Shown here: piece by piece, positions 113 to 64,000 of the stretch
Layout of the letters: each line of letters begins with the position of its first letter
Position numbering within the stretch: position 1 is the stretch's first letter
Assembly: GCA_039696685.1 (NCBI GenBank)
Contig: CP155566.1
Span: forward strand, 1,178,001-1,242,000
Reading direction: 5' to 3'
Origin: Vibrio sp. CDRSL-10 TSBA
GTDB taxonomy: Bacteria; Pseudomonadota; Gammaproteobacteria; Enterobacterales; Vibrionaceae
Length of the DNA stretch: 64,000 nucleotides
Program-made: the position numbers and the translations under genes
The notes under the pieces: generated by a model
Told to the model about the DNA's origin: nothing
Database searches by the model: none
The model's input: the letters and a program-made list of their open reading frames with translations, nothing else

Positions 113-635
113 ATGTCGATTATTCTGGGCATTGACCCGGGTTCACGTATCACAGGTTACGGTGTGATTCGTCAGCAGGGACGGCATCTGCATTATCTCG
201 GCAGCGGTTGTATCCGTATGTCGGAAAAAGAGCTGCCGCTGCGTCTCAAGCAGATTTACGCAGGCGTAAGCGAGATCATCACTCAGTTTCAGCCGGATGT
301 GTTTGCGATAGAACAGGTGTTTATGGCTAAGAAACGCCGATTCAGCGCTTAAACTCGGCCAGGCGCGCGGCAGTGCGATCGTGGCGGCCGTGAATGCCGA
401 ATTGCCGGTGTTTGAATACGCGGCCCGTCTGATTAAACAGGCGGTGGTGGGAATCGGTGGCGCCGACAAGGCCCAGGTCCAGCACATGGTGCAGCAGATG
501 CTCAAGTTGCCGGCTAAGCCGCAGGCCGATGCCGCGGATGCGCTTGGGGTGGCAATTTGTCATGCCAACACCAATAAAACCCTGGTGGCTCTGGCCGGAC
601 ATGCGACCAGCGCCCGACGCGGCCGATACCGTTAA
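113..635 (+). pseudogene. ruvC: RuvC Holliday junction resolvase, frameshifted as sequenced
   Basis: RuvC cuts Holliday junctions together with the RuvAB motor during recombination repair. The N-terminal part (from ATG 113) has the catalytic Asp in LGIDPGS and the second acidic residue in FAIEQVF. The frame then stops at 352, while the remainder (GQARGSAIVAAVNAE... ADAADALGVAI, with the last two catalytic Asp) continues one frame over and ends at 635. Deleting one A from the AAA at 332-334 (GAAAC to GAAC) restores the family sequence MAKNADSALKLG-like and a protein of about 173 residues, the normal length. Everything else is intact, so this is most likely a base-calling insertion and not a true loss. 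It heads a ruvC-ruvA-ruvB cluster; an imperfect GC hairpin follows at 659-679 without a T run. Confidence 0.9.
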
Positions 636-762
636 CTCCCGTTTCCTGCCTCTATAAAGCCGGTGCTTCCTGCGCCGGCTGCCTATCTTTCACTGGCTAT
701 CCATCCAGTTATTGATTATCATCTTTGCCATTCGTACTGATAAAAAACCAAGGATTTTCCCT

Positions 763-1380
763 GTGATTGGACGTCTTCGTGGCACCCTGATAGAAAAACA
801 ACCTCCTCAAGTATTGATTGATGTCGGCGGCATTGGTTATGAAGTTCAAATGCCGATGAGCTGCTTTTACGAACTCGACAATGTTGGAACCGAGGTCGTG
901 ATTTATACCCATTTTGTCGTTCGGGAAGATGCACAACTTCTGTATGGATTCAATACTGTCAATGAGCGAGCACTGTTTCGTGAAGTGATAAAAGCGAATG
1001 GCGTCGGCCCGAAAATGGGGCTGGCGATCTTGTCTGGCATGACAGCCAGTCAGTTTGTCGCCTGTGTTGAACGGGAAGATATTTCAACCTTGGTCAAACT
1101 GCCTGGAGTAGGTAAAAAGACTGCCGAACGTTTGGTGGTCGAAATGAAAGATCGCCTTAAAGGGTGGGGTGCGGGTGACTTATTTACCCCGGCAACCGAT
1201 GCTGCCCCGTTAGATTCTGTGTCTGGTATTGCAGACCAGAGCGCCGAAGAAGAAGCGGTGAGCGCGCTGCTGGCGTTGGGTTACAAACCGGCACAAGCCT
1301 CGAAGGCGGTCTCTCAGGTAGCGAAACCAGAGATGAGCAGCGAACAGCTGATCAGAGAAGCACTAAAATCTATGGTGTAG
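763..1380 (+). CDS. ruvA: RuvA Holliday junction branch-migration subunit
   Basis: RuvA binds the four-way junction as a tetramer and loads RuvB. The GTG at 763 gives MIGRLRGTLIEKQPPQVLID, the conserved family N-terminus, and has AGGA about 8 bases upstream; an ATG further upstream at 712 would add 17 residues not seen in the family. The 205-residue product matches the usual length of about 203. The OB-fold is at about 1-63, the helix-hairpin-helix region (VGPKMGLAILSG and LPGVGKKTAERLVVEMKDRL) at about 70-140, and the C-terminal RuvB-binding domain at about 155-205. Confidence 0.95.
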   Translation: MIGRLRGTLIEKQPPQVLIDVGGIGYEVQMPMSCFYELDNVGTEVVIYTHFVVREDAQLLYGFNTVNERALFREVIKANGVGPKMGLAILSGMTASQFVACVEREDISTLVKLPGVGKKTAERLVVEMKDRLKGWGAGDLFTPATDAAPLDSVSGIADQSAEEEAVSALLALGYKPAQASKAVSQVAKPEMSSEQLIREALKSMV

Positions 1381-1395
1381 CCAGAAGACTGAGTG

Positions 1396-1430
1396 AAACA
1401 GAAAGCGGCTGAGAGGGCCGCTTTCTGTTT
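1396..1430 (+). terminator. Hairpin between ruvA and ruvB, terminator-like
   Basis: Arms 1396-1409 and 1417-1430 form a perfect 14-base-pair stem with a 7-base loop. The 3' arm ends in TTT, but there is no longer T run, so termination may be partial. It lies 16 bases after the ruvA stop. This suggests ruvB can be transcribed separately from ruvCA. Confidence 0.5.
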
Positions 1431-61953: not shown

Positions 61954-61962
61954 CAAATGAGA

Positions 61963-61986
61963 AGAGGGAGCTCAAAGGCTCCCTCT
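61963..61986 (+). terminator. Hairpin after the DHH gene
   Basis: AGAGGGAGC (61963-61971) / GCTCCCTCT (61978-61986), perfect 9-bp stem; only a weak T stretch follows. Confidence 0.6.
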
Positions 61987-62038
61987 GTTATATCCGATTT
62001 CCAATCAAAGCGACGGGCCGGACTTCTGTTCTGGCGGT

Positions 62039-64000
62039 TCAAATCAGGGTCATCAGCGGATCGCCACTGCTGACTCTGGTCGAGCTGGTGACAATCACAT
62101 CCAAATAATCATCGCTGTTGGTAATCACTATCGGTGTGGTGGTGTCATATCCGAGGGTGGTCAGCACTTGCAGGTCAAACTGTATCAGTAGTTGTCCCTG
62201 GACGACCTCCTGGCCTGCCTCAACCAGCAATTCAAATCCCTTGCCTTTGAGTTTGACCGTATCGATGCCGATGTGAATCAGCATTTCCACGCCGTCTTCA
62301 CTTTGCAGCCCGATCGAGTGATGGGTTTTGAATACCGAAGCGACTTTACCATTAAACGGCGCTCGCAGTTCTCCGCTCTCCGGGATGATGGCGACGCCTT
62401 GCCCGATAATTTCACTGGCGAAGGTAGGGTCACCAACCATAGATAAAGCGACTACCTGACCGGAAATCGGACTGCTGATTTGCGCAAAGGAGCGGCTTTT
62501 AGCTCGTTTCTGCCGGTAAGTTATACCTATCAGCTTTGTCGGACGCTTTTGTTCCCGCAGACGCCATTGTTTCCGATGGTACAGTAGTTCCTGCAGACGC
62601 CATTCTTTCCGCAGACACACTGGTTTTTTCAGACACCATTCTTTCCGCAGACACACTGGTTTTTTCAGACACCATTCTTTTCGTAGATAGCATAGCTTTT
62701 CCGCTTGCCTGGCTGTCTGGGGTAAAAAAGTAGGTGAGAGTGATCGCCAGCAGTAAAGTAAGCAGGGTGCCTAAAATTGTGGCATACACCGAGTTGTCCA
62801 CGCCCGTTGGCGGAATAATCTGCAGAATAGAAAACAGGCCCGGCATCGCCAGCGAATAGGCTTTGGCGTAAAAGAAGGCTGCGATACCTGAGCCGACTGC
62901 AGCAGATAAGCAGCCAAAAATAAACGGCCATCGTCTGGGCAGAGTAATGCAATATATCGCGGGTTCTGTGACGCCAAACATCGCTGTGACCGCCGCACTA
63001 CCAGCGTAAGCAACACTTTGTTGCTTGCGGTATTTCAATACAATTCCCAGACAAGCACCGACCTGGCCAAACACAGCGGGAAGCAATAGTGGTGGGATAA
63101 CATCAAAACCATTCACCGCGATGTTGCTCATCACTATAGGAGCCAGGCTCCAGTGGATGCCAAACACCACCAAGACTTGCCATATCGCTCCGATGATCAT
63201 ACCGGCAATGACCGGACTGGCGTGATACAAGAAGAACACGACAGTAGAGATCGCTTGGGCGATAGTAGTACTGAGCGGCCCGATGACCAGAAAGGTTAAC
63301 GGAATGGTGATCATCAGGCACAGAAATGGTGCCAGCCACTTATAAAGATATTCGGGTAGTGACTTAGGGATACGTCGCTCCAGCCAGACATTAAACCAAG
63401 TGGCGAATAAAACGGGAATCACCGAGTTTGAATAGTTAATAAACTGGAGGGGCAGGCCGAGAAAATCGGCTTGCTGGGGCGTCACTGCGGCCGCTTGTTG
63501 TGAAAAAAGCGCATCGACATGACTGGTAATCTCAGGGTGTACCAGGGCTCCGGCGATAGTGATCCCAAACAGTGGATTGGAGCCAAAATGTTTTGAAGCC
63601 GTATAACCGAGTAATACCGGCAGAAAGAAAAACACCGTATCGGCGGCAGAATAGAGGATACGGTAAGTGCCGGTATCGATACCCAACCATCCCATACTGA
63701 CACACAAAATTATGGTGCTTTTTAAAATGCCGGCTGCACTCAAAAACCAGAGAATAGGATTGAAAATGCTAGTAATGGTGTTGATTAGAGTGCTAACGTG
63801 CCCTGGAAAGTTGTGGTTTTCCGTAGTACCTATCAATGGTGTTACGGACTGATAGAGTTTCTCAACCTGGGTTCCGATGACGATCTGAAACAGACCTCCG
63901 GACAGCATCACAGAGATCACTTCCGGCAGCTGTTGAATCTCTTTCACTGCGTCTACGGGGATCTGTTTGAGCTGGAAGCGTAGACGGGTAGTGCAATGGG
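62039..64000 (-). pseudogene. PTS beta-glucoside-type EIIBCA transporter, partial at window end and frameshifted as sequenced
   Basis: A leftward gene that enters from the right edge. The first visible codons (about 63994-63940) encode the end of the EIIB active-site region, CTTRLRFQL, followed by an EIIC domain with about ten helices, a long Ser/Thr-rich linker with tandem repeats, and an EIIA(Glc-type) domain with the phospho-His in MLIHIGIDTV. The EIIC frame stops at 62499; removing one base of TTT 62507-62509 (GAAAC to GAAC on the coding strand) gives YNLPAERAKSRSFAQISSPI and joins the EIIA part ending at 62039. It phosphorylates and imports a sugar, probably a beta-glucoside; specificity is not certain. 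The true start lies outside the window. Confidence 0.88.
62565..62672. repeat. 36-base tandem repeat in the EIIC-EIIA linker
   Basis: Two nearly identical 36-base units (62601-62636 and 62637-62672) and a diverged third (62565-62600). They code 12-residue units of the type RMVSEKTSVSAE in the PTS protein's linker. Confidence 0.88.

What the first reader, a model, noticed from the sequence alone, without database searches (positions are those of the whole stretch)
332..62509. All 14 gene-breaking +1 errors fall in GAAC/GTTC: an apparent sequencing footprint of DNA phosphorothioation
Seen: 14 conserved genes are broken or have altered ends, and each is repaired by removing one base from an AAA or TTT at 332-334, 1999-2001, 3077-3079, 7359-7361, 10882-10884, 15747-15749, 25438-25440, 27054-27056, 29449-29451, 37935-37937, 44555-44557, 47561-47563, 50920-50922 and 62507-62509. 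In all 14 the run is G-AAA-C (6) or G-TTT-C (8), i.e. an expected GAAC or GTTC; the outer flanks vary. If homopolymer errors ignored context, only about one AA/TT run in sixteen would have these neighbours. Known: one class of Dnd systems (E. coli B7A, Salmonella Cerro 87) puts the sulfur between G and A/T of GAAC/GTTC, modifying only a fraction of sites; here other GAAC sites (e.g. 311-314 in ruvC) are unaffected. Inference: the base-caller inserts a base at modified sites, so the assembly records the specificity of the dnd island it contains. Loss of cydA, pal, tolQ and ruvB together in a living vibrio is implausible.
Basis: partly seen in the sequence, partly recalled or inferred. Interest (0 to 1): 0.95.

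Follow-up and report, generated by a model that had tools for sequence, protein, structure and literature searches.

The report
DNA sulfur marks misread as mutations

Summary
Observation confirmed and widened. The 14 GAAAC/GTTTC pentamers are present (one coordinate is off by one). A context-blind scan of 142,995 bp of the genome's coding DNA against relatives found 25 frame breaks: all net +1 mod 3, all 25 with GAAAC/GTTTC at the junction (expected about 2). Among eleven 23S copies the only indel is the same change, in one copy.
The window holds a dnd/dpt island; DndC is 68% identical to GAAC-type E. coli B7A. A second genome of the genus with dnd, G087, shows it too (14 of 16 breaks). In 97 other dnd loci, 0 of 15 well-supported breaks do. 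Affected sites favour A/C before and G/T after GAAC (24 of 38 vs 237 of 1,118), the flanks published for phosphorothioated sites in Salmonella (PMC9521924).
Most likely these are consensus errors at phosphorothioated GAAC/GTTC. Not shown: sulfur itself, and the sequencing platform. Main tension: published per-site modification below 40-50% in B7A and Cerro 87.

The parts
17111..17198 (+). tRNA-Ser(gga) beside the dnd island, a possible integration site
   Evidence: ARAGORN; role inferred
18009..19787 (+). dptF/dndF, PT-dependent restriction
   Evidence: TIGR03238 475.7 bits; DndF 6.8e-213
19790..21142 (+). dptG/dndG
   Evidence: TIGR03236, DndG
21102..26229 (+). dptH/dndH in two frames (ORFs 21102-25463 and 25414-26229)
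   Evidence: DndH profile 1-1418 then 1417-1678; frame break supported by 6 references and 14 loci
25437..25441 (+). GTTTC at which the dptH frame changes
27035..28186 (+). DGQHR-domain protein, DndB/DpdB-like; N-terminus possibly altered at GTTTC 27054-27058
   Evidence: TIGR03187; TIGR04172 below its cut-off; DpdB
28238..28585 (-). dndE
   Evidence: TIGR03184; best PDB match 4lrv; 64% to B7A DndE
28585..30598 (-). dndD in two frames (ORFs 29429-30598 and 28585-29298)
   Evidence: DndD profile split 1-378 and 429-657; break supported by 43 references
29448..29452 (+). GTTTC at which the dndD frame changes
30607..32238 (-). dndC, sulfurtransferase, one open frame
   Evidence: TIGR03183; 68% to E. 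coli B7A DndC
32235..33314 (-). dndB, regulator, one open frame
   Evidence: TIGR03233 481 bits; 66% to B7A
33513..35540 (-). DNA phosphorothioation-associated putative methyltransferase
   Evidence: TIGR04096 708.7 bits
331..335 (+).
1998..2002 (+).
3076..3080 (+).
7358..7362 (+).
10881..10885 (+).
15746..15750 (+). GAAAC where homology of a sensor-kinase-like frame ends
36167..36171 (+).
37934..37938 (+). GAAAC at a frame break in a cytochrome bd oxidase subunit I gene
   Evidence: PF01654 1-255 then 263-418
47560..47564 (+). GAAAC at a frame break in a TonB-dependent siderophore receptor gene
   Evidence: NF052649 37-678 then 694-744
62506..62510 (+). GTTTC at a frame break in a beta-glucoside PTS IIABC gene (or the GTTTC at 62569-62573)
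   Evidence: NF007335 45-477 then 469-626

Best explanation
The extra A or T in GAAAC/GTTTC at all 25 scanned frame breaks is most likely a sequencing or consensus error, predicted to arise where the genome's own Dnd system puts a phosphorothioate between G and A/T of GAAC/GTTC. Inferred steps: the DNA was read natively; the sulfur-bearing backbone disturbed the signal so that a two-base run was read as three in most reads of a site; no short-read correction removed it. Only a subset of sites is marked, so 25 of 1,143 (2.2%) show it in covered coding DNA. If so, the cell would have working dndD, dptH, rho and ruvB, and the breaks exist only in the file.
For: Context: 25 of 25 blind-scan breaks hold the pentamer, all net +1 mod 3 (1.9 expected). 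Biology: rho is split in two frames and no other full-length Rho matched; Rho is essential in E. coli (recalled). 23S: the only indel among 11 copies (2,891 columns) is GAAC to GAAAC in one copy; a 23-mer with that insertion occurs in 1 of 227 genus genomes and 1 of 369 class genomes, each time this one. Machinery: dndBCDE, dptFGH and associated MTase; DndC 68%, DndB 66%, DndE 64% to E. coli B7A, whose PT sites are GAAC/GTTC (PMC6459556). Replicate: G087, dnd-bearing, 73.5% DNA identity over the 39 kb that aligns, 3 of 3 breaks in its dnd locus and 11 of 13 in 70.5 kb of core. Comparison: 97 other dnd loci, 1.19 Mb covered, 0 of 15 breaks with support of two or more. Flanks: A/C GAAC G/T in 24 of 38 affected vs 237 of 1,118 GAAC sites, p 5e-8, each genome significant alone; EcoWI-seq reports 'A or C [GAAC/GTTC] T or G' for modified sites. 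Rate: 2.2% here; 3.9-4.4% of motifs called modified by nanopore in Salmonella (PMC9069010).
Against: No sulfur was measured and the platform of G000 and G087 is unknown. PT-IC-seq puts per-site modification below 40% in Cerro 87, its B7A bins stop at 40%, and eight B7A sites checked by droplet PCR were no more than 50%; a majority consensus should not change at such levels unless these vibrios modify more fully. That paper found no flanking consensus in B7A, and in vitro modification showed no flank effect (PMC4515589). The published C at -2 is not reproduced (0.28 vs 0.30) and G at +2 only weakly (0.43 vs 0.38). Only 1 of 11 near-identical 23S copies carries the change, although site choice is said to be deterministic. 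Two of 13 core breaks in G087 lack the pentamer. A cruder gap tally between G000 and G087 was noisy: pentamer near 14 of 72 single-base gaps. 14 of the 25 breaks rest on one reference each. The passages I read in PMC9069010 do not say that PT gives insertions.
Confidence: 0.82

Rival explanations
1. Another mark at GAAC/GTTC, for instance methylation by the dnd-associated methyltransferase (33513-35540), disturbs the sequencing signal; the sulfur does not.
For: TIGR04096 is encoded in the island and a homologue also in G087, so the two clear footprint genomes share it. PMC9069010 itself warns of shared substrates for methyl- and sulfur-transferases.
Against: No homologue was found in the B7A, EC5 and A37 dnd stretches or in L072, whose one well-supported break holds the pentamer. 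Of 103 dnd stretches examined 56 have it, most without footprint. A methyltransferase usually marks nearly all its sites (recalled), yet only 25 of 1,143 show the error. The flanks fit those published for PT sites.
Confidence: 0.08
2. A base-caller or polisher flaw at GAAC, unrelated to any DNA mark.
For: Flank preferences can also come from k-mer context; platform data are missing, so dnd-free controls could not be matched.
Against: In G065, which had no DndC match, the 2 breaks are net -1 and neither holds the pentamer; G144 had none. Only 25,900 bp of these two were covered (15,229 and 10,671), so this is weakly tested. Both clear footprint genomes carry dnd, although only 29 of 227 genus genomes have DndC over the cut-off.
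Confidence: 0.06
3. Real +1 mutations: phosphorothioated GAAC is a mutation hot spot.
For: The extra bases stand in the assembly; one of eleven 23S copies could be a true variant.
Against: 97 other dnd loci lack the pattern.
Confidence: 0.04

Closest known systems
Nanopore error-based detection of phosphorothioates in Salmonella enterica (Wadley et al. 2022, PMC9069010; abstract, passages and section 18 seen)
   Same: Native reads show error signatures at GAAC/GTTC that fall in a dndC deletion; about 4% of motifs called.
   Different: There errors are counted in reads against amplified DNA; here they have apparently become fixed single-base insertions in finished public assemblies. The passages seen do not state the error type.
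EcoWI-seq map of PT sites in Salmonella Cerro 87 (PMC9521924; passages seen)
   Same: Partial use of GAAC/GTTC with A/C before and T/G after.
   Different: Enzymatic map giving 12% of sites; here 2.2% of covered coding GAAC sites, and the -2 C preference is not seen.
dndBCDE-dptFGH of E. coli B7A (annotated record)
   Same: Same core gene set; DndC 68%, DndB 66%, DndE 64% identical.
   Different: Window adds a DGQHR protein and a TIGR04096 methyltransferase; DptF, DptG and most of DptH are only 41-45% identical; dndD and dptH are frame-broken in the file.
Methylation-linked systematic errors in nanopore bacterial genotyping (recalled; PMC12675498 and PMC13317016 seen as search listing only)
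   Same: As recalled, a native DNA modification giving strain-specific consensus errors.
   Different: Base methylation there; here an apparent backbone mark and a single-base insertion.

Membership tests
Dnd phosphorothioation system, GAAC/GTTC type | dndB, dndC, dndD, dndE present | tested here: met
   dndD only in two frames
Dnd phosphorothioation system, GAAC/GTTC type | all modification genes intact | tested here: inconclusive
   dndD is frame-broken at GTTTC in the assembly; if the break is an artefact, met
Dnd phosphorothioation system, GAAC/GTTC type | DndCDE close to a GAAC-type system | tested here: met
   68% (C), 64% (E), 53 and 58% (D pieces) to B7A
Dnd phosphorothioation system, GAAC/GTTC type | cognate restriction genes dptFGH | tested here: met
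   dptH in two frames
Dnd phosphorothioation system, GAAC/GTTC type | sulfur donor DndA/IscS | not tested
   not searched
Dnd phosphorothioation system, GAAC/GTTC type | partial site use with A/C [GAAC] G/T flanks | tested here: met
   25 of 1,143 sites; 24 of 38 vs 237 of 1,118, as a footprint, not as sulfur
Dnd phosphorothioation system, GAAC/GTTC type | d(GpsA)/d(GpsT) in the DNA | not testable with these tools
   needs LC-MS/MS or iodine cleavage
Modification-induced consensus error | errors confined to the modified motif | tested here: met
   25 of 25; G087 14 of 16
Modification-induced consensus error | absent where the modification genes are absent | tested here: inconclusive
   G065 0 of 2 breaks, G144 no breaks, G007 0 of 26 raw unmasked breaks; platforms unmatched
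Modification-induced consensus error | native-DNA long reads, no short-read polishing | not testable with these tools

The most novel reading that the evidence does not exclude
Finished public genomes carry frozen phosphorothioate maps: where native reads were not corrected, each GAAC/GTTC that is marked in most molecules stands in the file as GAAAC/GTTTC, so Dnd target specificity, the A/C-GAAC-G/T preference and candidate high-occupancy sites can be read from deposited assemblies alone, and these vibrios modify their sites more fully than B7A or Cerro 87.
Probability: 0.55. Interest if true: 0.78.

Novelty: new variant of a known kind. Interest (0 to 1): 0.68.

Why it matters
If right, many 'pseudogenes' in this genome and in G087 are false (25 per 143 kb covered; as a plain extrapolation about 860 per 4.9 Mb), and gene-loss or pseudogene claims from dnd-bearing long-read genomes need checking. 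Conversely, the error is information: it would give a retrospective read-out of backbone sulfur and its sequence preference, and bear on the open question of which GAAC sites Dnd chooses. Searches for this in print listed nanopore PT detection in reads but no paper that I recognised as reporting PT-caused frameshifts in assemblies; I saw only the listed rows, and the library lacks preprints and most subscription journals.

Tried and rejected
Programmed frameshifting: rejected, since breaks fall in unrelated genes and one 23S copy. Raw pentamer composition: no clear GAAAC excess over relatives, as expected for about 2% of sites. tRNA genes: 110 found; two clusters run with ARAGORN showed nothing that I could tie to the footprint; not pursued. 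G229, G023 and most of the G008 stretches gave little synteny with the window; the first 17 kb is covered mainly by G008, the dnd island by dnd loci, the rest mainly by profiles. E. coli: 204 of 5,426 genomes carry dnd; 60 best and 60 spread rows were seen, which do not show pseudogene flags; the three loci read have dndBCDE and dptFGH without such flags. If RefSeq drops heavily frameshifted genomes (recalled) this set is biased, so I do not count it either way. G251 (L072, Psychrosphaera haliotis): one well-supported break, with the pentamer, in the dnd locus; none in 3.9 kb covered elsewhere; no paper on its sequencing found. In one search, 38 raw breaks included many in rRNA operons, antisense frames and duplicates; the wide rRNA mask and strand choice removed these, and with them one gene break near an rRNA operon that also holds GTTTC. 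All 14 left in that stretch hold the pentamer; one search's nucleotide gap placement had put several of them beside rather than in it. Of 41 breaks in the dnd-locus scan, 19 had support from one locus only and were left out of the main count; 2 of those 19 hold the pentamer. The 23S comparison of other genomes used 6 copies each: G087 has one indel column, not at GAAC; G251 and G219 none; G144 one; the G065 alignment failed on partial loci. One search was a script failure, repeated.
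Full report
WHAT WAS CHECKED. The window is G000:C2:1178001-1242000 of a two-contig, 4.90 Mb genome with completeness 95.9 and contamination 4.55. 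Its genus group holds contigs equal in length to those of named Vibrio records (6,826 and 315,253 bases), so I call it a Vibrio; the species is not known. All 14 runs are G-AAA-C or G-TTT-C, one coordinate being off by one.

CONTEXT-BLIND SCAN. Open frames of relatives (145 reference sequences, 7,868 ORFs) were aligned to 624 kb of the genome (window, 160 kb of flanks, and C2:1-400000). A break was called where one relative's ORF matched on two sides of a frame change with matching coordinates (50% identity or more, 20 residues or more, rRNA surroundings masked). 142,995 bp were covered, 37,718 of them in the window. 25 breaks were found; all are net +1 mod 3, none -1 mod 3, and 25 of 25 have GAAAC or GTTTC in the junction interval of 25-53 bases. 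14 of the 25 rest on a single reference. Expectation for GAAAC is 2.1, and the eight other XAAAY contexts show 0-3 observed against 1.0-2.3 expected; 20,000 random placements gave at most 8.

BROKEN GENES. The breaks include rho, uvrD, rph (ribonuclease PH) and trkA, named from the relative's intact ORF. Rho is split in two frames (profile 2-143 and 141-414), and the other matches are weak and partial. Within the island dndD and dptH are themselves broken; if these breaks were real, little phosphorothioate should be made (inference).

RRNA. Eleven 23S copies differ at 27 substitution columns but at a single indel column: one copy reads GAGAAAC where ten read GAGAAC. The base before the site is A and the one after is T, the favoured flanks. 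A 23-mer with the extra A was found only in this genome among 227 genus genomes and among 369 class genomes. That ten copies lack it fits a site near the calling threshold (inference) or a true variant.

THE ISLAND. 18009-35540, near a tRNA-Ser: dptF, dptG, dptH, a DGQHR protein, then on the other strand dndE, dndD, dndC, dndB and a PT-associated putative methyltransferase. Identities to E. coli B7A: DndC 68, DndB 66, DndE 64, DndD pieces 53 and 58, DptF 41, DptG 43, DptH pieces 45 and 68%. B7A and Salmonella Cerro 87 are GAAC/GTTC strains.

A SECOND GENOME. Genus-wide, 29 of 227 genomes have DndC over the cut-off. In one of them, G087 (2 contigs, contamination 4), DndC is itself split. Its dnd locus has 3 breaks, all with the pentamer, and four 20-kb core stretches have 13 breaks, 11 with it (70,528 bp covered; random mean 1.0, maximum 6). 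The two exceptions each rest on one reference. G087 and G000 share 73.5% identity over the 39 kb that aligns, so they are different species.

OTHER DND LOCI. 101 loci were scanned (80, 20 stretches, and the window's island). Breaks with support of two or more: window 3 of 3 with the pentamer, G087 3 of 3, L072 1 of 1, and 0 of 15 in the other 97 loci, 1,191,222 bp covered; two of those 15 are the same contig held twice (L093, L312). Sixteen dnd-bearing genus genomes of two to four contigs among them cover 214,760 bp with 5 breaks, none with the pentamer. So dnd alone does not give the footprint; dnd plus a way of sequencing would (inference).

CONTROLS WITHOUT DND. G065: 15,229 bp covered, 2 breaks, both net -1, no pentamer, one interval holding a seven-A run. 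G144: 10,671 bp, no breaks. G007, 400 kb unmasked: 26 raw breaks, no pentamer, most of them looking like rRNA-operon sequence repeated at each operon. Platforms are unknown, so these controls are limited.

FLANKS. For 38 affected sites with one candidate pentamer (25 own, 13 G087; one more of G087 was ambiguous and dropped), A/C at -1: 30 of 38 vs 483 of 1,118 coding GAAC sites; G/T at +1: 30 of 38 vs 555 of 1,118; both: 24 of 38 vs 237 of 1,118, p 5e-8; own alone p 4e-5, G087 alone p 3e-4. Against natural GAAAC elsewhere (88 of 352) p is 5e-6. T at -1 and -2 is rare (34 of 38 without T vs 492 of 1,118), which the passages I read do not mention. EcoWI-seq reports A/C before and T/G after for modified sites in Salmonella and in E. 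coli with its dnd genes, plus C at -2 and G at +2. The first pair agrees; the -2 C does not and +2 G is weak. PT-IC-seq of B7A and in vitro work saw no flank effect.

RATE. 25 of 1,143 coding GAAC/GTTC sites (2.2%). Published: 12% by EcoWI-seq, 3.9% of GTTC and 4.4% of GAAC by nanopore in the Salmonella wild type, 0.6% of GAAC in the dndC deletion. A consensus change should need most reads to err, so a lower figure is expected. The difficulty is occupancy: PT-IC-seq finds sites below 40% in Cerro 87, bins up to 40% in B7A, and no more than 50% at eight B7A sites checked by droplet PCR.

MECHANISM, SHOWN AND INFERRED. Shown: the pentamer at all scanned breaks, one sign of error, a full dnd/dpt gene set, a second dnd genome alike, flanks like those of PT sites. 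Inferred: PT is present; native reads were used; sulfur at G-A/G-T makes a two-base run read as three. Section 18 of PMC9069010 says that PT alters the ionic signal at several positions in a context-dependent way; it does not speak of insertions.

VERDICT. An artefact in the file, most likely written by a real epigenetic mark. Kind known, form apparently new.

Noticed in passing
   Followed up: partly
40332-40456: A V_AS5 RNA-family element; relative G022 has 45 matches to the stretch searched, nearly all of them to this element and most at 83-94% identity, but five other genomes have few, which looks like a lineage-specific amplification.
   Followed up: no
27035-28186: A DGQHR protein between dptH and dndE; E. 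coli EC5 has DGQHR/DndB-like ORFs between the same genes, so an extra DndB-like gene there may be a recurring arrangement.
   Followed up: partly
affected sites in G000 and G087: T is rare at -1 and -2 of affected GAAC sites (34 of 38 without T; 492 of 1,118 in background): either a Dnd preference or a signal-context effect.
   Followed up: partly
L072 (Psychrosphaera haliotis), position about 16877: One frame break supported by 22 loci and holding the pentamer, in a dnd stretch without a TIGR04096 methyltransferase homologue: a possible third footprint genome.
   Followed up: partly
L162 (G000:C2:2605001-2608500): A repeated Met/Leu/Gln tRNA array, 17 tRNAs in 2.1 kb.
   Followed up: no
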